A DNA stretch of 64,000 nt from Mycolicibacterium fortuitum subsp. fortuitum. GTDB lineage: Bacteria > Actinomycetota > Actinomycetes > Mycobacteriales > Mycobacteriaceae. Location of the stretch: positions 6,262,001 through 6,326,000 of the forward strand of contig NZ_AP025518.1 of NCBI RefSeq assembly GCF_022179545.1, in the 5' to 3' direction. The position numbers and the translations under genes were made by a program. Position 1 is the first letter of the stretch; every line of letters starts with the position of its first letter. Of the stretch, positions 31,844-42,137 are shown piece by piece. Under the pieces are notes generated by a model. That model made no database searches. It was not told the DNA's origin and worked only from the letters and a program-made list of their open reading frames with translations.

Positions 31844-34378
31844 ATGACCACTCCCCTGCTCGACGATCCGAACGACCTCTCGGCACTGCAAGCCAAGGGC
31901 GGCGACGCCGACGCGCTGTTCACCGACTTCGCCGGCTGGGCCGAGGCCAACGGCACCACGCTGTACCCGGCGCAGGAGGAGGCGCTGATCGAACTGGTCA
32001 GCGGGGCGAACGTGATCCTCGCGACGCCGACAGGATCGGGTAAGTCTCTGGTGGCCACCGGGGCGATCTATGCGGCACTGGCCGGGGACCGCGTCAGTTT
32101 CTACACCGCCCCGATCAAGGCGTTGGTCAGCGAGAAGTTCTTCGCGCTGTGCGACGTGTTCGGGGCAGACAACGTCGGCATGCTCACCGGGGACGCATCG
32201 GTCAACGCCGACGCTCCGATCATCGCCTGCACCGCCGAGATCCTGGCCAACCTCGCGTTGCGCGAAGGGGCCGATGCCGATATCGGCCTGGTGGTGATGG
32301 ACGAGTTCCACTTCTACGGCGACCCCGACCGCGGCTGGGCCTGGCAGGTGCCGCTGCTGGAGCTTCCCAAGGCCCAGTTCCTCTTGATGTCGGCGACCCT
32401 GGGCGACGTGACGTTCCTGCGCAAGGATCTGACCCGGCGCACCGGCCGGGAGACGGCGTTGGTCACCGGCGCGCAGCGCCCGGTTCCGTTGTTCTACTCG
32501 TACGCCACCACCCCGATGCACGAGACCATCGCCGATCTGCTCGAGACCAAGCAGGCACCGATCTACGTCGTGCACTTCACCCAGGCGTCGGCGCTGGAAC
32601 GAGCCCAGGCGTTGATGAGCGTCAACGTGTGCACCAAGGAAGAGAAGGCCGCGATCGCCGAACACATCGGCAGCTTTCGTTTCTCGACGACATTCGGGTC
32701 CACGCTGTCGCGGCTGGTGCGGCACGGCATCGGCGTCCACCACGCCGGAATGCTGCCCAAATACCGTCGCCTGGTGGAACAGCTGGCCCAGGCCGGGCTG
32801 CTCAAGGTGATCTGCGGCACCGACACCCTCGGCGTCGGCATCAACGTGCCGATCCGCACCGTGGTGTTCTCTGCCCTGTCCAAATACGACGGCACCCGGA
32901 TGCGGCTGCTCAATGCCCGCGAGTTCCATCAGATCGCCGGGCGGGCGGGCCGGGCCGGGTACGACACCGTGGGCACCGTCGTGGTGCAGGCACCCGACCA
33001 CGAGGTCGAGAACATCAAACAGTTCGCCAAGGTGGCCGACGACCCGAAGAAGCGTCGGAAACTGGTGCGGCGCAAGGCGCCCGAGGGCATGGTGCCGTGG
33101 GGTGAGAACACCATGAACCGGCTGATCGATGCCGCACCCGAAGCATTGACCAGCAACATGCGGGTCTCGACGGCCATGATTCTCGACGTCGTGGACCGTC
33201 CCGGCGACCCGTTCGAGGCGATGCGCCGACTGCTCACCGACAACCACGAACCGCGCAAGCGTCAGCTGAAGCACATCCGGGAGGCCGTCGGCATCGCCCG
33301 ATCACTGCTGCAGGCCGGCGTCGTGGAACGACTCGACGAACCCGAGGCCGATGGTCGCCGCTACCGGCTGACCGTCGACCTGCCGCCGGACTTCGCCCTC
33401 AACCAGCCCCTGTCCACCTTCGCCCTGGCCGCCGTCAACGTCCTCGATCCGGATTCGGAAAGCTATGCGCTGGACGTGGTTTCGGTGATCGAGGCCACCC
33501 TTGAAGATCCCCGCCAGATCCTGGCCGCCCAGCTGAACAAGGCCAGGGGCGAGGCAGTGGCCCAGATGAAGGCCGACGGGATCGAGTACGACGAACGCAT
33601 CGAGCTGCTCGACGAGGTCACCTACCCCAAACCTCTACGAGAACTGCTCGAGCACACCTACGAGGTGTACCGCCAGACCAATCCGTGGGCGGCCGACGGG
33701 CATCTGTCCCCCAAGTCGGTGGTCCGCGAAATGTGGGAGCGGGCCCTGACCTTCCGCGAATACATCAGCCTCTACGGGCTGACCCGCTCCGAAGGGGCGG
33801 TGCTGCGCTACCTGTCCGATGCGTTCAAGGCGCTGCGATCGGGAGTGCCCGCCACCGCCCGCACCGAGGAGCTCGCCGACATCGTCGAGTGGCTGGGCGA
33901 ATTGGTGCGGCAGGTGGATTCGAGCCTGCTCGATGAATGGGAGCAGCTGACGAGCCCCGACCAGCCGCACGATGTGCCGGTGGCGGTGCCGGCCCGGCCG
34001 CGCCCGCTCACCGGCAACGATCGGGCATTCACCGCGATGGTGCGCAACGCGTTGTTCCGGCGGGTGGAGTTGTTCGCCCGGGCCCGCTGGGACGAGCTCG
34101 GCACGCTGGATGCCGCGTCAGGTTGGACCGCCGATCGGTGGGCCGAAATCGGTGAGGAGTACTTCGACGAGCACGCCGAGGTGAGGACCGGCGCCGACGC
34201 CCGCGGGCCGGCGTTGCTGATCTTCGACAAGCAGCCGCAGGTGTGGCGAGTTCGACAAATCCTCGACGATCCTGCCGGAGATCACGATTGGGGCTTCGAC
34301 GTGGAAGTGGACCTCACCGCCAGCGACGAGGAAGGCGCTGCGGTGCTGCGTATCGTCGATGTCGGCCGGATGGGATAG
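31844..34378 (+). CDS. DEAD/DEAH-box helicase, SKI2-like (DUF3516 C-terminus)
   Basis: An 844-residue superfamily 2 helicase. Motif I is A-T-P-T-G-S-G-K-S near residue 63, motif II is D-E-F-H near 153, motif III is S-A-T near 183, and the C-terminal RecA domain has H-H-A-G-M-L, G-T-D-T-L-G-V-G-I-N and H-Q-I-A-G-R-A-G-R. The C-terminal third fits the actinobacterial DUF3516-type extension. It resembles SKI2/Mtr4-like RNA helicases more than DNA-repair helicases. It lies on the same strand as the HelD gene, separated by the RAE-like element, so it is probably not part of that operon. Confidence 0.92.
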   Translation: MTTPLLDDPNDLSALQAKGGDADALFTDFAGWAEANGTTLYPAQEEALIELVSGANVILATPTGSGKSLVATGAIYAALAGDRVSFYTAPIKALVSEKFFALCDVFGADNVGMLTGDASVNADAPIIACTAEILANLALREGADADIGLVVMDEFHFYGDPDRGWAWQVPLLELPKAQFLLMSATLGDVTFLRKDLTRRTGRETALVTGAQRPVPLFYSYATTPMHETIADLLETKQAPIYVVHFTQASALERAQALMSVNVCTKEEKAAIAEHIGSFRFSTTFGSTLSRLVRHGIGVHHAGMLPKYRRLVEQLAQAGLLKVICGTDTLGVGINVPIRTVVFSALSKYDGTRMRLLNAREFHQIAGRAGRAGYDTVGTVVVQAPDHEVENIKQFAKVADDPKKRRKLVRRKAPEGMVPWGENTMNRLIDAAPEALTSNMRVSTAMILDVVDRPGDPFEAMRRLLTDNHEPRKRQLKHIREAVGIARSLLQAGVVERLDEPEADGRRYRLTVDLPPDFALNQPLSTFALAAVNVLDPDSESYALDVVSVIEATLEDPRQILAAQLNKARGEAVAQMKADGIEYDERIELLDEVTYPKPLRELLEHTYEVYRQTNPWAADGHLSPKSVVREMWERALTFREYISLYGLTRSEGAVLRYLSDAFKALRSGVPATARTEELADIVEWLGELVRQVDSSLLDEWEQLTSPDQPHDVPVAVPARPRPLTGNDRAFTAMVRNALFRRVELFARARWDELGTLDAASGWTADRWAEIGEEYFDEHAEVRTGADARGPALLIFDKQPQVWRVRQILDDPAGDHDWGFDVEVDLTASDEEGAAVLRIVDVGRMG

Positions 34379-34406
34379 GTGATTGCTGGCTCCCATTTTA
34401 TCGCGA

Positions 34407-34433
34407 CCCCGGGGCCTTGCGGCAAGGCCGGGG
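34407..34433 (+). promoter_or_regulatory. Rifamycin-associated-element-like inverted repeat
   Basis: The core GGCCTTGCGGCAAGGCC (34413-34429) is a perfect inverted repeat with a single-base centre, flanked by CCCC/GGGG. It matches what I recall of the rifamycin-associated element that precedes rifamycin-inducible genes such as rph and helR in Actinobacteria. It lies 32 bp before the start of the HelD gene. TTGCGG (34417-34422) and CACAAT (34442-34447) could be -35/-10 elements, but the 19-bp spacer is long. Alternatively, it could be the terminator of the helicase gene. The identity should be checked against the published motif. Confidence 0.7.
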
Positions 34434-34460
34434 TGATGGCGCACAATCGCTGGCCTGAAC

Positions 34461-36659
34461 ATGCCGAGGATGAACGAGGAGCACGTGCCAGCAGACGACC
34501 ACGACGCCGAAGTACAGAGCGAACAGACCTATGTCGACGGGCTGTACGCCCGCTTGGACGCCGAGCGCGCCCGGGTGCGTGACCGGTACCGCACCGCACT
34601 GCGCGAGCACGGCGGTACCGCGGTGGAACGCGACGCCGAGGTGCGCGCATTGGCCAAGGAAGCCAACCGGCTCGACGTGGCCGACAACGGCCTGTGCTTC
34701 GGGCGGTTGGAAACCGTTGCCGGAGAACATCTCTACGTCGGACGCCTGGGCCTGTTCGATCGCGAGAACGACTACGAACCGTTGCTGTTGGACTGGCGGG
34801 CACCGTTGGCGCGGCCGTTCTACACCGCGACCGGAGCCCATCCGGAGAACATGCGCCGGCGGCGCCAGTTCCGAACCCTCGGCCGCCGTGTTCTCGATTT
34901 CACGGACGAGGTGCTGGGCCGGCCCACCGAGGGCGACGGAGGTGATGAAGACGCCGCCCTGCTGGCCGCGGTGAACGCGCCGCGCGGTGAGGGCATGCGC
35001 GACATCGTGGCGACCATCCAGGCCGAACAGGACGAGGTGATCCGCAACGGGCACACCGGCGTGCTCGTGGTCGAGGGCGGGCCCGGTACCGGTAAGACCG
35101 TGGTCGCGCTGCACCGGGTGGCCTATCTGCTCTACACCCACCGTGAGCGGATCGAGCGGCACGGCGTGCTGGTGGTCGGCCCCAACGAGGCGTTCCTGAA
35201 CCACATCGGCCGGGTGCTGCCGTCCCTGGGTGAGTCGGACGCGGTGTTCATGACGCCGGGCGACCTGGTGCCCGGGCTGCACGTCACCGCCGAGGAGGAC
35301 GTGCCCGAGGTTGCCGCGCTCAAGGGGTCGCTGCGGATTCTCGACGTGCTGGCCGCCGCGGTGGCCGACCGTCAGGAGGTGCCGGACGAGCCGATCTACA
35401 TCGACCTGCCCGACGTCACGGTGCGCATCGACGCCGAGACCGCGCAGTGGGCCATCGAGGAGGCCCGAGAGACCGGACTCCCGCACAACGAGGCGCGAGC
35501 GACGTTCCGCGACATCGTCACCTACGTCCTCACCGAACGCGCCGTCGCCCGCATCGGCAAGGCCTGGCTGACCCGTGCGGACAAGGCGGCCTGGGAGGAA
35601 CTGCGGGCCAGCGTGGTCAGCGAACTCGACGACAATGTCGCGTTCGCCGCGGCACTCGACCGGCTGTGGCCGATCCTCACCCCGGAAAGCCTGCTCTCCA
35701 CGCTGTATTCGTCCCCAGACCGGTTGCAGGCGGCCGGGGCGGACGCCCGTTTCCTCCGCGCCGACGGCGACGCCTGGACCGTCTCGGACGTGCCGCTGCT
35801 CGACGAACTGGTCGACCTGCTGGGGCGCGACAAGGCGGCCGACGAAGCCGCCGAACGCGAGCGCCGGGAAGAAGCCGCCTACGCCGCAGGGGTGCTCGAC
35901 CTGATGGTCGCCCGCGAGGATCTGATGGACGACGAAGACCACCTGCTGGCCGCCGACCTGATCGACGCGGAGGACCTGGCCGACCGCTTCCTCGAGCGCG
36001 ACACCCGCGAGCTCGCCGAACGTGCTGCGGCCGACCGGGACTGGACCTACGGTCATGTTGTGGTCGACGAAGCCCAGGAGCTGTCCGAGATGGACTGGCG
36101 GATCCTGATGCGTCGCTGCCCACGACGGTCCTTCACGGTGGTCGGGGATCTGGCGCAGCGCCGCTCGGCGGCCGGGGCCAGATCCTGGGCCGCCATGCTC
36201 GAGCCGTATGTGCCGGGCCGGTGGATCTACCGGACGCTGTCGGTCAACTACCGGACCCCGGCCGAGATCATGGCGGTGGCCGGAGCGGTGCTGGCGGAGT
36301 TCGCCCCCGGCGTCCAGCCGCCCGAGTCGGTGCGGTCCTGTGGTGTTCAGCCCTGGTCGCGGCGGTTGACCGCAGCTGAAATCCCTGGCGCTGTAGAGGA
36401 ATTCGTGCGGGATGAAGCCGGTAGAGAGGGCACCAGCGTGGTGATCGGTCCGCCCGAGGTGCCCGGCGCGGTGGCGCCGTCGGAAACCAAGGGCCTCGAG
36501 TTCGACGCGGTGCTCGTCGTGGAGCCCGCACGCATTCTGGCCGACGGTGACCGCGGCGCCGCCGAGTTGTACGTCGCCCTCACCCGCGCGACACAACGCC
36601 TCGGGGTGCTGCACACCGAACCGCTGCCCGCAGCACTGAACGGACTGGTCGATGTCTGA
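34461..36659 (+). CDS. helD: HelD/HelR-type RNA polymerase-recycling ATPase
   Basis: A 732-residue UvrD/Rep-type superfamily 1 ATPase of the HelD family. It has an N-terminal coiled-coil region (about 20-75) expected to enter RNA polymerase, the D-W-R-A-P-L-A-R-P-F-Y segment near residue 112, Walker A G-G-P-G-T-G-K-T near 206, Walker B V-D-E-A-Q-E near 535, the T-K-G-L-E-F-D-A-V motif near 676 and V-A-L-T-R-A-T near 705. HelD proteins pull stalled or blocked RNA polymerase off DNA; HelR members protect polymerase from rifamycins. The element upstream supports the HelR type. ATG at 34461 or 34470 are both possible. The stop overlaps the next gene by 8 bp. Confidence 0.92.
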   Translation: MPRMNEEHVPADDHDAEVQSEQTYVDGLYARLDAERARVRDRYRTALREHGGTAVERDAEVRALAKEANRLDVADNGLCFGRLETVAGEHLYVGRLGLFDRENDYEPLLLDWRAPLARPFYTATGAHPENMRRRRQFRTLGRRVLDFTDEVLGRPTEGDGGDEDAALLAAVNAPRGEGMRDIVATIQAEQDEVIRNGHTGVLVVEGGPGTGKTVVALHRVAYLLYTHRERIERHGVLVVGPNEAFLNHIGRVLPSLGESDAVFMTPGDLVPGLHVTAEEDVPEVAALKGSLRILDVLAAAVADRQEVPDEPIYIDLPDVTVRIDAETAQWAIEEARETGLPHNEARATFRDIVTYVLTERAVARIGKAWLTRADKAAWEELRASVVSELDDNVAFAAALDRLWPILTPESLLSTLYSSPDRLQAAGADARFLRADGDAWTVSDVPLLDELVDLLGRDKAADEAAERERREEAAYAAGVLDLMVAREDLMDDEDHLLAADLIDAEDLADRFLERDTRELAERAAADRDWTYGHVVVDEAQELSEMDWRILMRRCPRRSFTVVGDLAQRRSAAGARSWAAMLEPYVPGRWIYRTLSVNYRTPAEIMAVAGAVLAEFAPGVQPPESVRSCGVQPWSRRLTAAEIPGAVEEFVRDEAGREGTSVVIGPPEVPGAVAPSETKGLEFDAVLVVEPARILADGDRGAAELYVALTRATQRLGVLHTEPLPAALNGLVDV

Positions 36660-37857
36660 CACCACCTGCGCGATCGTCGGCGGCGGCCCCGCCGGGATGA
36701 TGCTCGGGCTGATCCTGGCCCGCTGCGGGGTGGCGGTCACCGTCATGGAGAAGCACGCCGATTTCCTGCGCGACTTCCGCGGCGACACCGTGCATCCGAG
36801 CACCATGCGGATGCTCGACGAGCTGGGATTGTTCGGCAAATTCGACAAGATCGGCTACAGCTTGGTGGAGAAGGCGGAGTTCCCGGTCGACGGCCGACCC
36901 GTGACATTGGTCGACTTCCGTCGGCTGCGCCAGCCCCATCCGTACGTGGCGATGGTGCCGCAGTGGGACTTCCTCGACCTGCTGGCCGACGCCGGACGCG
37001 ACGAACCGAATTTCACCCTGCGGATGCAGACCGAGGTGACCGGCCTGCTGCGAGAAGGTGAGCGCATCACCGGAGTGCGCTACACCAGCCCCGACGGCGC
37101 CGGTGAACTGCACGCCGAGCTCACCGTGGCGTGCGACGGGCGCACCTCGCTGGTCAGGCGGGAGGCCGATCTGAGTACGCGCGACTATCCGGTGCCCTTC
37201 GACGTGTGGTGGTTCCGCCTGCCGCGCACCGAAGATGGCCAGTACTCGCTGATCCCGCGCACCGCCCCCGGGCGCGCGCTGATCATGATTCCCCGCACCG
37301 GCTACTTCCAGGTGGCCTACCTGATCCCGAAGGGCAGCGACAGGCAGCTGCGGGCGCGCGGCCTCGACGCCTTCCACGCCGAACTCGCCGAGCTCATCCC
37401 CGAGGCCGATACGGCGACGCTGACCTCCTGGGACGATGTCAAGCATCTCGACGTGCAACTCAACCACCTGCGACGGTGGCACCGAGAGGGGCTGCTGTGC
37501 ATCGGCGATGCCGCGCACGCCATGTCGCCGGTGGGTGGTGTGGGGATCAATGTCGCGATCCAGGACGCAGCGGCCGCCGCGCGCCTGCTGTACCAGCCGC
37601 TGCGTGAGCACCGGGTCGGCGAATCCGATCTCGCCGCAGTGCAACGGCGTCGCCGTCTGCCCACCGCGATCACCCAAGGGCTCCAACGCATCCTGCACCG
37701 TCAGGTGATGGCGCCCGTGATGGCCGGGGCCGACATCGCTCCACCCGGGACGCTGGTGCGCATCGTCCGCCGGTTTCCTCAGCTCACCGCGATCCCGGCG
37801 TATCTGGTCGGTACCGGGGTACGTCCCGAACACGTCGCCGTGCCGGCCCGGCGATAG
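36652..37857 (+). CDS. FAD-dependent monooxygenase
   Basis: A 401-residue group A flavoprotein monooxygenase. It has the N-terminal G-G-G-P-A-G motif (residues 9-14), R-G-D-T-V-H-P-S-T at about 43, the C-D-G-R-T-S-L-V-R segment near 162 and the FAD-ribityl motif G-D-A-A-H-A-M-S-P-V-G-G-V-G-I-N near 285. It is shorter than rifampicin monooxygenase Rox and is not obviously an orthologue. Its ATG overlaps the HelD stop by 8 bp, so both are read from one message, and a role in modifying the antibiotic that induces HelD is an attractive inference. Confidence 0.92.
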   Translation: MSDTTCAIVGGGPAGMMLGLILARCGVAVTVMEKHADFLRDFRGDTVHPSTMRMLDELGLFGKFDKIGYSLVEKAEFPVDGRPVTLVDFRRLRQPHPYVAMVPQWDFLDLLADAGRDEPNFTLRMQTEVTGLLREGERITGVRYTSPDGAGELHAELTVACDGRTSLVRREADLSTRDYPVPFDVWWFRLPRTEDGQYSLIPRTAPGRALIMIPRTGYFQVAYLIPKGSDRQLRARGLDAFHAELAELIPEADTATLTSWDDVKHLDVQLNHLRRWHREGLLCIGDAAHAMSPVGGVGINVAIQDAAAAARLLYQPLREHRVGESDLAAVQRRRRLPTAITQGLQRILHRQVMAPVMAGADIAPPGTLVRIVRRFPQLTAIPAYLVGTGVRPEHVAVPARR

Positions 37858-37864
37858 GAGCGGC

Positions 37865-38488
37865 GTGGCAGGCAAGCAGAACCCCGAACAGCGGAGGCGC
37901 GAATTGTGCGACGCCGCAATCACTCTGCTGGCTCGGGAGGGCATCAAGGGTGTCACCCACCTGAAGGTGGACCGCAAGGCCGGCGTGCCGGACGGAACCA
38001 CGTCGTTCTACTTCCGCACCAGTGCGGCACTGATGCGGGCGACGGCCAACCGCATCGCCGATCTCGACCTGGCCGATCTGACCGCGGCCACCGGCTCCGG
38101 TGCGCACGGTGACGTACGGGGTCTGGCCCGGCTGGTCATCCGCTCGGGAACGGGTGCGCGTCTGGTCCGGAGCAAGGCCCGCTATGAGCTGGTGATGCCG
38201 TCGAGCCGGGACGCCAACCTGGCCGAGGCGTTCAGCCGCAACCAGGAACGCTTTCTCGAACTGCACCGCAATGTCGTGGCCGGGCTGTGCCCCGCCGACA
38301 CCGACCCCGCCCTGATCGACGAAAAGGCTTATGTGCTGCTGACTTTCATCAGCGGATTGATGCTGGCCCTGGCCCGCGGCGACCGCACGATCAGCTCCGA
38401 CGAGCAGCTCTACGGCATCATCACCGCCATCGTCGCGGCGGCCCCGGCCGTCTCACATCGCGAAGGAATAGCCGCCGTTGACCGGTAA
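37865..38488 (+). CDS. TetR family transcriptional regulator
   Basis: A 207-residue regulator. The helix-turn-helix runs R-R-E-L-C-D-A-A-I-T-L-L-A-R-E-G, then T-H-L-K-V-D-R-K-A-G-V-P-D-G-T-T-S-F-Y-F-R-T. The GTG at 37865 has GGAG five bases upstream and lies 7 bp after the monooxygenase stop, so it is the third gene of the HelD unit. It may respond to a product or substrate of the monooxygenase. Its 3' end overlaps the convergent SDR gene by 36 bp. Confidence 0.9.
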   Translation: MAGKQNPEQRRRELCDAAITLLAREGIKGVTHLKVDRKAGVPDGTTSFYFRTSAALMRATANRIADLDLADLTAATGSGAHGDVRGLARLVIRSGTGARLVRSKARYELVMPSSRDANLAEAFSRNQERFLELHRNVVAGLCPADTDPALIDEKAYVLLTFISGLMLALARGDRTISSDEQLYGIITAIVAAAPAVSHREGIAAVDR

Positions 38489-39232
38489 GGTCTGGCCGGT
38501 GATCCAGGAACCGTGCTCACTGGCCAACAGCACCGCGAGATAAGCCACGTCCTCGGGCAGACCGGGTCTGCGGATCGGGTACCGCGACAGGATCGCCTTG
38601 GCCTGCGGCGAATCCGCCATCTCACCCCACAGCGGTTCGGTGAGCGGTGTGCGCATGGTGCCCAAGGCGATGTTGTTGGCCGTGATGCCGTAGCGACCGT
38701 TCTCCAACGCGATCGACCGGGTCAGACCCGCCGCACCGGCTTTGGCGGCCGCGTACACAGCGCCGCTGGCGTCCCCGGTTCGTCCGGCATCCGAGACGAT
38801 CGTCACGACCCGGCCCCACTGCCGTTCCACCATCGCCGGCAGTACCGCCCGGGTGCAGTGCAGTACCCCATACAAATTCACCTGCAGGAAGGGATCCCAA
38901 TCCGCGGGCGTGCTCTCGGCGAACGGCATCCGGGCGGCGAAGCCCTCGGCCCCGGCGTTGCCCGCATTGTTGACCAGGATGTCGACCGGTCCGGCGGCGT
39001 CCACCGCATCGGTGACGGCCCGATAGTCGGTGACGTCGAACGGCACCGCCAGCGCGTCACCGCCGGCGTCTCTCAACTCTGCGGCCACCGCCTCGGCCCG
39101 CTCGACTCGCAGGTCGTTGACCAACACCGTGGCCCCGGCGGCCGCGAAGGCATCCGCCAAGCCCCGGCCAACTCCCTGCCCGGCACCGGTGATCAACACC
39201 CGGCGGTGTGACAGATCGAATTGCAGCGTCAT
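38453..39232 (-). CDS. Short-chain dehydrogenase/reductase
   Basis: A 259-residue SDR. It has the cofactor motif T-G-A-G-Q-G-V-G near residue 15, N-N-A-G near 88, the catalytic Y-A-A-A-K (Tyr and Lys) near 158 and the closing I-T-G-Q-T-L-P-V-N-G-G segment of classical members. The ATG at 39232 (MTLQFDLS) is preferred over a start at 39271. The substrate is unknown. It is convergent with the TetR gene and not part of the HelD unit. Confidence 0.92.
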   Translation of the reverse strand: MTLQFDLSHRRVLITGAGQGVGRGLADAFAAAGATVLVNDLRVERAEAVAAELRDAGGDALAVPFDVTDYRAVTDAVDAAGPVDILVNNAGNAGAEGFAARMPFAESTPADWDPFLQVNLYGVLHCTRAVLPAMVERQWGRVVTIVSDAGRTGDASGAVYAAAKAGAAGLTRSIALENGRYGITANNIALGTMRTPLTEPLWGEMADSPQAKAILSRYPIRRPGLPEDVAYLAVLLASEHGSWITGQTLPVNGGYSFAM

Positions 39233-39905
39233 GTCGGGTGGCCCTTCCTCGCGGTCCGCGTTTGGGGACAACCTAGCCCAGCTCTCTACGCCAGTAGAGA
39301 CTCGAGGTCGAGTAACCGCCTGTTGTCACGGCCGGCTGGCCCGCGCATGCCGCTGCTGTTCGCGCTTTCCGTACGTGGCGCTGCGTACCGCGTAGTCGCT
39401 TTCGAAGCTCGAGCCCAGCGCGCCCGCGAAGGTGACCGTTCGTCGGCGTCGTCGCTGACCCTGGCCCGGCAGGCGCTTGCCAGCCCACAGCGTTGTCTCT
39501 CTCCTAGAGGACCGAGGTCATTGAGATCTTGCCTCGTGCGGGTCGACGGCTTGCCCCGGGGGCGGAGGGGCTTGGCACAGGGCCATCGGTGCGCTTGTTG
39601 TTTCGCCCGGCGGGTCAGGTACGCCGCCTACTCGGTGACGATGTCTTATGCCCATCCACCGTAGGCGAATCATGCCACTCCATAACGGCAAACGATCGAT
39701 GGCCAGTAGGGCGCTAACACACCTAGCAGATCAAACCCAAGTACATGAGGTTTGCTGTAACGCAAACGCGCCTCCGCTATACCACTCCGATTGATTATCA
39801 ACGCCCCAGGTAGTTGGCAATTACTGGCGGCATCCTCTACAGTCCGTGCCATCGCACAATAGGTAGCTGTCTACTGCTGAGTGTGGGCTATTGATCGGGG
39901 GAACC
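39233..39905. other. Gene-poor stretch before the toxin island
   Basis: About 670 bp without a convincing gene. The first 400 bp are high-GC; the last 250 bp become AT-richer than the surroundings. A short minus-strand open frame (39670-39852, 60 codons) and a plus-strand one (39221-39664) exist but have no recognisable motif. It probably contains the toxin gene promoter and may mark the edge of an acquired segment. Confidence 0.5.
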
Positions 39906-42137
39906 ATGCGTGGACATCAAGCCTTGCCGGCAAGTGCAGACAACTTTCTTCGCTCACATGAGCAAAGTGCGTGGTTGGGGTGGCCGGCGCGGTGGATGGC
40001 GGTGCTGTGTGCGGTGGCGGTCACCATTGGTGGGCTGCACCTGGTCGCACCGGCACCGGGGCACCGCGCCGATCGGTTGCAGCCGAGCGTGTCGGCGGCG
40101 CAGGGGTTCGCCGACGCCGCGGTGGCTGCGTTCACCGATTCGGGGGTCGGTTCTGACCCCGCCATGACTGCTGAGCAGCGCCGCGCCGGATTGCCTGATC
40201 AGCCGGTGGTCGGCTTGACCTCACAGACCCCGGCCGGTCCGGTGCAGGTGGTGTTACCCGGCGGTTTAGGCGCTGGCCAGAACACCCCGGGCGGGCAGGT
40301 CGTGTATCCCAATGCCGGTGCGGGCTTTGACATGCTGGCCGAAAACACCGCTTCGGGCACCCGCACCGTGGCCCGTATCCAGGACCCTGCCGGGCCCCGG
40401 ATGGTCACCACCTTCGTGCGGACACCTGCCGACACCGTGATGCTGGCCCACGCCAACGGATACCTGACCATCAACAAAGCCACCCCGGCCGCCGAAACCA
40501 TCGGCATGTTCTCCCCGGCCGAAACCCGCGACGCCACCGGCAAGTTGGTGCCCAGCTCGTATGTAGTGAAGCAGCTCGCCCCGCAGCTGTATGTGTTGGC
40601 CGAAGTCATCGACCCCCGCCCCGACACCGCCTGGCCGATCTATGTCGATCCACCCCTGCATGTCGGCGGACCCGGTTATCCGCTGCCGGCGGGGTTGTTC
40701 GATTCGGTCACCAGCGCGGTCAGCTCCGTCGCCGATACCGTTACCTCAGCGGCCTCCACCGCCATGTCGGCCACCGTCTCCGGGGCCAAAACCGTCGGGA
40801 CGTTCGTCAAAGAGAACCCGCTGGAGTCGGCCATGCTCGTCGGCGGGGTCGCCCTGGCGTTGACCGGGGTTGGCGGGCCGGCCAGCGCGGCGATGATCGC
40901 CTCGGCCACGGTGAATCTGGCCAGCGCAAGTGTGGACATCGCTGCCGCGGCCATGCCGGATAACCAAGCTTTGGGCATCGCTTCGGACGTGCTCGGCGCC
41001 GCCTCCATGGTCACCCCGCAAGGCGCGGCCAAAAAGGCGGTCAGAGAAGGCGCTGAGCTGGCCGTCGAGCAACTGGCCAAACATGCCGACGATGTCGTGG
41101 ACGTCGCCAAAGCCGCGCCCTCCCCGCCCGCGCAGTTAGCCGACGAAGTAGCAGCTGCCGGTGCCGCGAAAACGCCAGTGACACCGGGAACTTCACCAAA
41201 AGCACCGAACGCACCGCCCGCGGCCGCGAAGCCCGCTGAGGTTCCGTGTGCAGGACAATCGTTCACCCCCGACACGTTGGTCCTGCTCGCTGACGGCACC
41301 AACCGACCCATCAGCCAGCTGCGTGTCGGAGACCAGGTGTGGTCCGCCAACCCGGCCTCGGGCCAGTCTGGGCCGCAGACCGTGCAGGCGGTGCTGGTCA
41401 ACCACGACGCCGACCTGCTTGACCTGACCATCACCAATGCAGCCGGTGTGTCCTCGGTCATCAACACCACTAGCGGACATCCCTTCTACAGCCCCGTCCG
41501 AGCGGACAGCACCACGATCGCGCTGGCGGCGAGCACCACGCCCACCCAGGACTACGGGCCCGGCTGGACCGAGGCCAAAGATCTGCGTTCCGGCGACGCC
41601 CTGTACACGCCCAATGGTGTTGCCGCGCAGGTCAAATCGACCACCCCGGTGCCCGGTGACGCCGACATGTGGGACCTCACCATCGAGACCACCCACACCT
41701 TCTACATCACCACCCCAACCGCATCGGTACTGGTCCACAACTGCCCAGTCGCCGGCCCTGACCTGCCGGTCCCGACGCCGCTAAGCCGAAACCAGCCACC
41801 GACGGCAAGGACATCACACCGAAGGTCAAGGATCACGTCACCGCGGACCGGGTATCGAAGAGCCCTGACGGCAATCTGCGCTGCGAAAACCCCCACTGCG
41901 CCCAACGCGTCTACCGCCAGGAAGGAAGAACGCGTAAAGGCGACAAGATTCCACCCAACCGTGCCCAGTTCGACCACGACGCCCAACCGAAATCACGCGG
42001 CGGCACCGGTGGCACCAACGGTGAAGACGTCAAGATTCTATGTGCACGATGCAACGGACCCGCCGGCAAAAGCGACAAAACACCCGAGGAATGGGCGGAG
42101 GTCCAAAAATATGTCGGACAGGACTCCCGAAGGATAA
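39906..42137 (+). CDS. Polymorphic toxin with pretoxin Hint domain, frameshifted before its nuclease
   Basis: A secreted toxin-type protein. It has an N-terminal membrane or signal segment (about residues 25-50), a long Ala/Pro-rich passenger region, and a pretoxin Hint (self-cleaving) domain at about residues 448-613. The Hint Cys opens C-A-G-Q-S-F-T-P-D-T-L-V, T-S-G-H-P-F-Y is the block-B His segment, and the domain closes with V-L-V-H-N-C. The frame then continues as Thr/Arg/Pro-rich residues that do not look like a domain, to a stop at 42137. An HNH nuclease lies in the -1 frame directly beyond, so this reading frame appears broken by a one-base deletion near 41771. The ATG at 39906 follows GGGGGAA. 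Confidence 0.82.
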   Translation: MRGHQALPASADNFLRSHEQSAWLGWPARWMAVLCAVAVTIGGLHLVAPAPGHRADRLQPSVSAAQGFADAAVAAFTDSGVGSDPAMTAEQRRAGLPDQPVVGLTSQTPAGPVQVVLPGGLGAGQNTPGGQVVYPNAGAGFDMLAENTASGTRTVARIQDPAGPRMVTTFVRTPADTVMLAHANGYLTINKATPAAETIGMFSPAETRDATGKLVPSSYVVKQLAPQLYVLAEVIDPRPDTAWPIYVDPPLHVGGPGYPLPAGLFDSVTSAVSSVADTVTSAASTAMSATVSGAKTVGTFVKENPLESAMLVGGVALALTGVGGPASAAMIASATVNLASASVDIAAAAMPDNQALGIASDVLGAASMVTPQGAAKKAVREGAELAVEQLAKHADDVVDVAKAAPSPPAQLADEVAAAGAAKTPVTPGTSPKAPNAPPAAAKPAEVPCAGQSFTPDTLVLLADGTNRPISQLRVGDQVWSANPASGQSGPQTVQAVLVNHDADLLDLTITNAAGVSSVINTTSGHPFYSPVRADSTTIALAASTTPTQDYGPGWTEAKDLRSGDALYTPNGVAAQVKSTTPVPGDADMWDLTIETTHTFYITTPTASVLVHNCPVAGPDLPVPTPLSRNQPPTARTSHRRSRITSPRTGYRRALTAICAAKTPTAPNASTARKEERVKATRFHPTVPSSTTTPNRNHAAAPVAPTVKTSRFYVHDATDPPAKATKHPRNGRRSKNMSDRTPEG

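What the first reader, a model, noticed from the sequence alone, without database searches (positions are those of the whole stretch)
34407..38488. RAE-like element drives a HelD-monooxygenase-TetR operon
An inverted repeat with core GGCCTTGCGGCAAGGCC lies 32 bp before a HelD-family ATPase, whose stop overlaps an FAD monooxygenase, followed 7 bp later by a TetR regulator. HelR-type HelD proteins clear RNA polymerase from rifamycins, and the rifamycin-associated element marks rifamycin-inducible genes in Actinobacteria. The layout suggests one inducible unit that both protects polymerase and may modify the drug. The monooxygenase in this unit is, to my knowledge, not described.
Basis: partly seen in the sequence, partly recalled or inferred. 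Interest (0 to 1): 0.88.

Follow-up and report, generated by a model that had tools for sequence, protein, structure and literature searches.

The report
Rifamycin-defence operon with unexplained monooxygenase
A mycobacterium carries a probably rifamycin-inducible operon that couples a known polymerase-rescue protein to an uncharacterised oxygenase, and its switch looks like a mirror-image promoter, which suggests a testable answer to how actinobacteria may sense this antibiotic.

Summary
A perfect palindrome (34413-34429) lies before a HelR-type HelD gene that overlaps a flavin monooxygenase (FMO) by 8 bp; a TetR gene follows 7 bp on. HelD's conserved start is GTG 34485, so the gap is 55 bp, not 32. 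The palindrome is a genuine RAE: its exact 14-mer occurs three times in this genome, before arr, rox and this operon. RAE plus HelD is already known. HelD-FMO-TetR is a single-lineage arrangement (9 of 148 genus genomes). The FMO is not Rox: its family is widespread and elsewhere pairs with TetR without HelD or RAE nearby, and the genome has a true RAE-linked rox. Co-induction is likely; rifamycin modification by the FMO is unproven. Three of 10 operon genomes have lost the RAE. The most novel result is the switch: in 75 of 77 mycobacterial RAE promoters and 30 of 30 class-wide loci the RAE has a sense -10 and a reverse-strand TANNNT, each 15 nt from the core. I read the RAE as the shared -35 zone of a mirror-image two-way promoter. 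Transcription was not measured.

The parts
34395..34400 (-). Reverse-strand -10-like hexamer TAAAAT, exactly 15 nt from the RAE core (mirror of the sense -10); 34394-34399 also reads CATTTT in the sense direction
   Evidence: TANNNT at this place in 75 of 77 mycobacterial RAE promoters and 30 of 30 class-wide loci
34412..34430 (.). RAE: 19-bp stretch holding the 17-bp palindrome 34413-34429 and the 11-mer core CTTGCGGCAAG 34416-34426
   Evidence: 45 of 45 fetched genus RAE loci lie beside helD, arr, rox or an Rgt-like gene
34442..34447 (+). Sense promoter -10 CACAAT, exactly 15 nt after the RAE core
   Evidence: YANAAT at exactly this distance in 67 of 77 RAE promoters, control 0; kept in the operon loci that keep the RAE
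34485..36659 (+). HelD/HelR, RNA polymerase recycling ATPase; conserved GTG start (ATG 34461 is the longer, non-conserved start)
   Evidence: NF041465 1441.7 bits (cut-off 1051) and NF041258 HelR_2 1349.5 (cut-off 1100); solved relative 6yxu 1242 bits; start; PCh tip and Walker A
36652..37857 (+). FAD monooxygenase (PRK06185 subfamily), overlapping helD by 8 bp
   Evidence: NF004833 651.9 bits (cut-off 488); overlap of 8 bp in 9 of 9 operon genomes; AlphaFold2 model pLDDT 91.5
37865..38488 (+). TetR-family regulator, third gene of the unit
   Evidence: a homologue lies downstream of this FMO family in 23 non-operon genomes (my reading of the places)
31844..34378 (+). Upstream DEAD/DUF3516 helicase; its stop lies 33 bp before the 19-bp RAE
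   Evidence: PF12029 696 bits; upstream neighbour in 8 of 9 genus operon loci

Best explanation
This is a rifamycin-response operon: an RAE promoter drives helR, and a flavin monooxygenase with its old TetR partner has come under the same promoter once, in one mycobacterial lineage. Rifamycin raises transcription from the sense promoter whose -35 zone is the RAE; HelR then clears RNA polymerase of the drug; the FMO is made at the same time by translational coupling (8-bp overlap) and probably acts as an accessory oxidoreductase on an aromatic compound, possibly but not necessarily a rifamycin; TetR is probably a carry-over regulator of the FMO module rather than the RAE-binding factor. Shown here by sequence: gene identities, order, RAE identity, promoter geometry, history of the gene order. 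Inferred: induction, co-transcription, and any action of the FMO on the drug.
For: HelD and HelR family cut-offs met. The exact RAE 14-mer occurs three times in the genome, at arr, rox and this operon. 45 of 45 fetched genus RAE loci (44 distinct sites) lie beside helD, arr, rox or Rgt-like genes, and 30 of 30 class-wide loci beside HelD, Rox, Rgt-like or Rph genes. The sense -10 lies at a fixed 15 nt (67 of 77). The 8-bp overlap is kept in 9 of 9. FMO and HelD trees agree that both genes are inherited within the genus: operon FMOs support 98, sister G063/G087/G109, in which HelD and FMO lie apart; operon HelDs support 100, joined with these three and G077 at 95. FMO with a TetR homologue downstream occurs in 23 non-operon genomes. 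In another group an Rgt-like glycosyltransferase sits between the RAE and helD in 4 of 86 HelD loci, so joining HelD to a possible drug-modifying enzyme has happened at least twice. Literature: loss of half of the RAE abolished rifampicin induction of helD (PMC10719064, passages).
Against: No expression data for this organism. The RAE is missing in 3 of 10 operon genomes (G135, G020, M. setense), so rifamycin induction is not needed to keep the gene order. HelD loci without an RAE core within 250 bp are common (38 of 86, plus 3 with two mismatches; in 4 of these the RAE lies further up before an Rgt-like gene). The sigma-70 consensus scan found no promoter at 34250-34600 (it allows spacers of 16-18, here 19). 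The FMO's nearest solved structures are Bacillus niacini FMO entries, one with bound 2,6-DHP (TM 0.84), with Rox lower (TM 0.70), which points to catabolism as much as to drug modification.
Confidence: 0.72

Rival explanations
1. The FMO is a dedicated rifamycin-modifying enzyme that forms a second line beside HelR, so the operon both protects polymerase and destroys the drug.
For: It is tied to helR by an 8-bp overlap in 9 of 9 operon genomes and to an RAE promoter in 7 of 10; the genes directly behind the other fetched RAE sites are rifamycin resistance genes or their homologues; the parallel RAE-Rgt-like-HelD operon pairs HelD with a probable rifamycin-modifying enzyme; group A flavin monooxygenases include Rox.
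Against: Rox model 73 bits against 800. The lineage already has RAE-linked rox (G000, G128, G119) and arr (G000, G141, G021, G049, G135, G128). FMO relatives at 61-76% identity occur in many genus genomes, and none of the 77 other HelD loci has one within the 1.5-2.5 kb of flank held (shorter at contig ends). RAE lost in 3 of 10.
Confidence: 0.25
2. Bystander: helD landed upstream of an existing FMO-TetR pair and the FMO is merely carried along; its substrate has nothing to do with rifamycins and TetR still controls catabolic genes.
For: In the six loci looked at (L275-L280) FMO and TetR lie among sulfatase, P450, SDR or enoyl-CoA hydratase genes (families checked for part of them); 23 non-operon genomes have a TetR homologue 0.2-6.2 kb downstream of the FMO; RAE lost in 3 of 10 without loss of gene order.
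Against: The overlap of exactly 8 bp is kept in 9 of 9 genomes; FMOs of the operon clade stay 86-90% identical to the window's.
Confidence: 0.45
3. The RAE is the operator of an unknown rifamycin-binding transcription factor that acts on the sense promoter (the published guess).
For: At HelD genes the palindromic core is mostly exact or absent (41 exact, 7 with one or two mismatches, 38 none, of 86), as for a protein site; the first flanking pair is complementary in only 12 of 67, which does not favour an RNA hairpin; stated as possible in PMC10719064 (passages) and PMC12802891 (Discussion).
Against: The palindrome is centred about 33 bp before the expected start, on the -35 zone itself, which fits a competitor of sigma better than a usual activator (inference); this reading does not explain why a reverse-strand -10 is kept at the mirror distance in 75 of 77.
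Confidence: 0.45
4. The inverted repeat is only a transcription terminator of the upstream helicase.
For: It lies 33 bp after the helicase stop.
Against: No T run; no terminator found at 34250-34600; fixed distance to a -10; the same element precedes arr, rox, rgt-like and rph genes in other contexts.
Confidence: 0.02

Closest known systems
RAE-controlled HelR/HelD of Mycobacterium abscessus (MAB_3189c), M. smegmatis (MSMEG_2174) and Streptomyces venezuelae
   Same: Class II HelD with the PCh-loop tip, an RAE upstream, and the RAE on the -35 zone of the downstream promoter (PMC10719064, passages)
   Different: Here helD is the first gene of a unit with an FMO and a TetR; in the other 77 of 86 genus HelD loci a different gene is next
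Rifampin monooxygenase Rox/Iri
   Same: FAD_binding_3 flavin monooxygenase linked to an RAE
   Different: The window FMO fails the Rox model (73 of 800 bits), is shorter (401 against 479 aa), and the genome has a true Rox with its own RAE (L063, 888 bits)
Tetracycline monooxygenase MabTetX with its TetR regulator in M. abscessus
   Same: A flavin monooxygenase with a TetR regulator in a rapidly growing mycobacterium (PMC13001253, passages)
   Different: Sequence not compared here; no Tet(X) model among the 25 best of 69 families of the window FMO; not described with HelD or an RAE in the passages I saw
Two-promoter rifampicin alarm of Bacillus subtilis helD and pps
   Same: A sense and an antisense promoter upstream of helD; 19-bp spacer, described there for the antisense promoters (PMC12802891, abstract, Discussion and model sections)
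   Different: There the promoters are convergent and 39 bp apart, and moving them 17 bp closer abolished induction; here the two -10 hexamers face outward from one palindrome and polymerase could bind only one at a time. Its authors set the RAE apart as unexplained
RAE-rgt (rifamycin glycosyltransferase)
   Same: RAE promoter before a drug-modifying gene (published for rgt, PMC10719064 passages); in 4 of 86 HelD loci an Rgt-like gene lies between RAE and helD
   Different: The three Rgt-like proteins tested (L105, L113, L255) score 461-513 bits, below the family cut-off of 800

Membership tests
Rifamycin-associated element (RAE) | 19-bp palindrome with core TTGCGGCAA (core letters recalled; they also occur in an arr-upstream oligo in PMC7882622, passage) | tested here: met
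   Exact core and 17-bp palindrome
Rifamycin-associated element (RAE) | Lies before rifamycin resistance genes | tested here: met
   Before helD here; own genome's other two exact cores at arr and rox
Rifamycin-associated element (RAE) | Overlaps the -35 zone of the downstream promoter | tested here: met
   CACAAT 15 nt after the core, as YANAAT in 67 of 77
Rifamycin-associated element (RAE) | Needed for induction by rifamycin | not testable with these tools
   No expression data
HelR (class II HelD) | Family model | tested here: met
   NF041465 and NF041258 above cut-off
HelR (class II HelD) | PCh loop tip with adjacent Glu-Asp | tested here: met
   LMDDEDHLLA present, identical to M. smegmatis around Glu484-Asp485
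HelR (class II HelD) | Removes rifamycin from polymerase | not testable with these tools
   -
Rox, rifampin monooxygenase | Passes the curated family model NF033145 | tested here: not met
   73.3 bits against 800; the genome's true Rox scores 887.9
Rox, rifampin monooxygenase | Oxidises rifampicin | not testable with these tools
   -
PRK06185 FAD monooxygenase subfamily | Passes NF004833 | tested here: met
   651.9 bits against 488
MabTetX-type tetracycline monooxygenase | Sequence kinship with MAB_1496c | not tested
   Sequence not at hand
B. subtilis-type two-promoter rifampicin alarm | Convergent sense and antisense promoters about 39 bp apart | tested here: not met
   Hexamers face outward from one palindrome

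The most novel reading that the evidence does not exclude
The RAE is not a plain operator but the centre of a two-way promoter. One palindrome serves as the -35 zone for a sense promoter (CANAAT) and for a reverse promoter (TANNNT), each with a 19-bp spacer, so that polymerase can sit in only one direction at a time; in a subset the reverse transcript meets an intrinsic terminator at once. Polymerase itself, sorted between the two directions according to whether it carries rifamycin, would be the sensor, a solution different in geometry from the convergent promoters of Bacillus. In this lineage the same switch would drive an operon joining target protection to an accessory oxidoreductase.
Probability: 0.3. 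Interest if true: 0.85.

Novelty: new variant of a known kind. Interest (0 to 1): 0.58.

Why it matters
How actinobacteria sense rifamycins through the RAE is an open question stated in print (PMC12802891 Discussion; PMC13001253 passage: a mechanism 'yet to be known'). The fixed mirror geometry found here in 105 of 107 RAE promoters (75 of 77; 30 of 30) gives a concrete, cheap test with existing start-site tables and in vitro transcription. For the operon, it shows that HelR can be built into units with other enzymes (FMO in one group, Rgt-like in another), so a search for RAE operons may find further rifamycin-response enzymes, but it also warns that linkage alone does not make this FMO a drug-modifying enzyme.

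Tried and rejected
Terminator reading of the palindrome: rejected (no T run; fixed promoter geometry). RNA hairpin reading: not favoured, as the first flanking pair is complementary in only 12 of 67; the core itself was fixed by the search pattern, so its sameness in that set says nothing. Transfer of the whole operon from outside the genus: not supported, as FMO and HelD trees place both genes within the genus (the HelD tree holds genus rows only). TetR as general RAE factor: rejected, since close TetR copies (81-91%) occur only in the nine operon genomes of the 148 while RAE 17-mers occur in 103 of 148. A TetR operator: a palindrome before TetR in three other genomes (GTCTCGGTCCGAGA type) was not found in the window above chance (3 matches, 6.25 expected); the only palindrome found at 34300-34500 at that setting is the RAE. 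Structure search with the FMO model gave only the general fold class. Mirror symmetry of conservation beyond the -10s is weak: correlation 0.44 for mycobacteria, best of 11 shifts, and 0.33 class-wide, tied with another shift. The left hexamer also reads as a sense YANNNT in 73 of 77, so a sense upstream promoter at that place is not excluded. Report check: one search repeated the class-wide orientation test (sense -10 on the gene side in 30 of 30; for L306, L310 and L316 I set the gene direction) and named the exceptions.
Full report
What is there. Window 34407-38488 holds a palindrome, a HelD gene, a flavin monooxygenase gene and a TetR gene on one strand. HelD passes the curated models for mycobacterial HelD and HelR_2, matches solved M. 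[quoted passage not shown] The FMO (401 aa) passes NF004833 but not the rifampin monooxygenase model (73 of 800 bits). TetR has weak general matches only. The FMO start overlaps the HelD stop by 8 bp, and this is so in 9 of 9 operon genomes. The conserved HelD start is GTG 34485; hence the palindrome ends 55 bp, not 32 bp, before it.

The palindrome is an RAE. Loose matching is useless in this GC-rich genome (53 hits at up to two mismatches against 124 for the reversed control), but the exact core is specific: 3 hits of the 14-mer in the genome (control 1), and 155 against 8 for the 17-mer in 148 genus genomes (my sum). The other two hits in this genome lie before arr (NF000318 270 bits, cut-off 250) and rox (NF033145 888 bits, cut-off 800). 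Of 45 fetched genus RAE loci (44 distinct sites; L265 repeats L127), all 45 lie beside helD, arr, rox or an Rgt-like gene. Of 30 fetched class-wide loci, 27 match HelD, Rox or Rgt at E up to 1e-6 and the other three are rph by best family, as partial proteins. That helD has an RAE in M. smegmatis, M. abscessus and Streptomyces is published (PMC10719064 and PMC8655204, passages); of the two primary papers on HelR one was asked for and not held and neither was read; they are cited through these.

How widespread is the operon? In 148 genus genomes, 86 have HelD; the exact RAE core lies within 250 bp of 41 of them, 4 have one mismatch (two of these being the core with C at its centre), 3 have two, 38 none (one of these had only 152 bp of upstream sequence). 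HelD is followed by the FMO in 9 of 86, and no other HelD locus has a relative of it within the flank held. Named carriers are M. setense, Mycobacterium sp. URHD0025 and sp. NS-7484; that M. setense belongs to the M. fortuitum group is recalled. By identity I take the last two to be G128 and G135, and M. setense to be G389. Counting nine genus genomes plus M. setense, 7 of 10 keep the RAE (6 exact, 1 with C at the centre) and 3 have lost it through deletions: G135, G020 and M. setense. G020 also has a stop in tetR.

History. The nine operon FMOs form one clade (support 98), with FMOs of G063, G087 and G109 as sisters (107 FMO rows kept of 111 loci tried, plus window and Rox). Those three have HelD and FMO at separate places. 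Operon HelDs form one clade (support 100), joined at 95 with G077, G063, G087 and G109 (82 of 86 rows). So two inherited genes were most likely brought together once. The FMO-TetR link looks older: by my reading of the places, a TetR homologue lies on the same strand 0.2 to 6.2 kb downstream of an FMO in 23 non-operon genomes (a lower bound, as the FMO list was cut). In the six such loci looked at (L275-L280) the surroundings hold sulfatase, P450, SDR or enoyl-CoA hydratase genes (families checked for part). This suggests a catabolic past for the FMO. Its AlphaFold2 model (pLDDT 91.5; 72 sequences, 71 of the 107 relatives plus the window) is nearest to Bacillus niacini FMO entries (TM 0.84), with Rox at TM 0.70, rank 35.

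A parallel case. In 4 of 86 HelD loci (G034, G096, G121, G070) an Rgt-like glycosyltransferase gene lies between the RAE and helD; Rgt is the best family of the two of these tested, below its cut-off. So HelD has been combined with a possible drug-modifying enzyme at least twice. This raises, but does not settle, the chance that the FMO acts on rifamycins.

The switch. In 77 distinct mycobacterial RAE promoters (43 helD, 18 arr, 11 rox, 5 rgt-like; chosen by the exact core beside one of these genes) a YANAAT hexamer lies exactly 15 nt after the 11-mer core in 67, and in none at a control place 30 nt on. Less strictly, NANNNT is there in 76 of 77, and TANNNT lies on the reverse strand at the mirror place in 75 of 77, against a mean of 0.3% (largest 3.9%) at other places (the exceptions are L049 and L059). 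In 67 de-duplicated promoters the three key bases of that reverse hexamer are 97-100% conserved while the bases between them vary. Class-wide, 30 of 30 loci show both hexamers, in exactly one of the two orientations, and the sense -10 is on the side of the gene in 30 of 30. Terminator-like hairpins follow the reverse hexamer in 17 of 77 (20 plain shuffles: mean 4.35, largest 7; none after the sense hexamer), with perfect stems and a run of six T in 4 of 5 Rgt-like loci. The window has CACAAT at 34442-34447 and reverse TAAAAT at 34395-34400, no terminator there, and a reverse transcript would run antisense into the helicase gene. Limits: these promoters are related by descent, so the counts are not independent; the same left box reads as a sense YANNNT in 73 of 77; the FEMS 2022 review places a sense start about 20 bp before the RAE in M. 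smegmatis; one promoter of the 77, L040, whose HelD begins like the solved M. smegmatis protein, has a TACCCT that could serve it, a box absent from the other 76; mirror symmetry of conservation elsewhere is weak; and in B. subtilis bringing its two promoters closer abolished induction (PMC12802891, model section). Hence I give the two-way promoter a probability of 0.3.

Literature on this unit. No paper with rifampicin, HelD, FAD-dependent, TetR and Mycolicibacterium together was found, and the other searches listed none whose title or abstract start is about a HelD-FMO operon or a two-way RAE promoter; the library is partial and most hits were seen as listings only.

Noticed in passing
L105, L092, L113, L115 (G034, G096, G121, G070): A second kind of HelD operon: RAE, then an Rgt-like glycosyltransferase, then helD; seen in 4 of 86 HelD loci (family of L105 and L113).
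   Followed up: partly
L061 and L063 (own genome, C1:5310113 and C1:2276694): The genome's other two exact RAE cores lie before arr and a true rox, so the strain has three RAE-linked rifamycin defences.
   Followed up: yes
L275-L280 and one search places: The FMO family forms an older pair with a TetR in other mycobacterial genomes, near sulfatase, sugar-isomerase-like, P450, SDR and enoyl-CoA hydratase genes, possibly a catabolic cluster.
   Followed up: partly
L105, L255, L092, L113 (left flank of the RAE, reverse strand): Hairpin and T-run (intrinsic terminator) directly after the mirror -10, as if a very short reverse RNA were made and ended.
   Followed up: partly
L038/L228 (G020): This operon genome has both lost the RAE and a stop codon inside tetR.
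   Followed up: no
L286 (G090): HelD lies near the same DUF3516 helicase and a NUDIX gene as in the window's lineage but in another order, with an unusually long open frame of 869 aa for HelD.
   Followed up: no
window 39891-42137: A 748-aa frame looks like a polymorphic-toxin type protein with a Hint-like domain and an odd low-complexity C-terminus (from the translation; domain by eye only).
   Followed up: no
window 38453-39271 (-): A short-chain dehydrogenase gene runs convergently and overlaps the 3' end of tetR by 36 bp.
   Followed up: no
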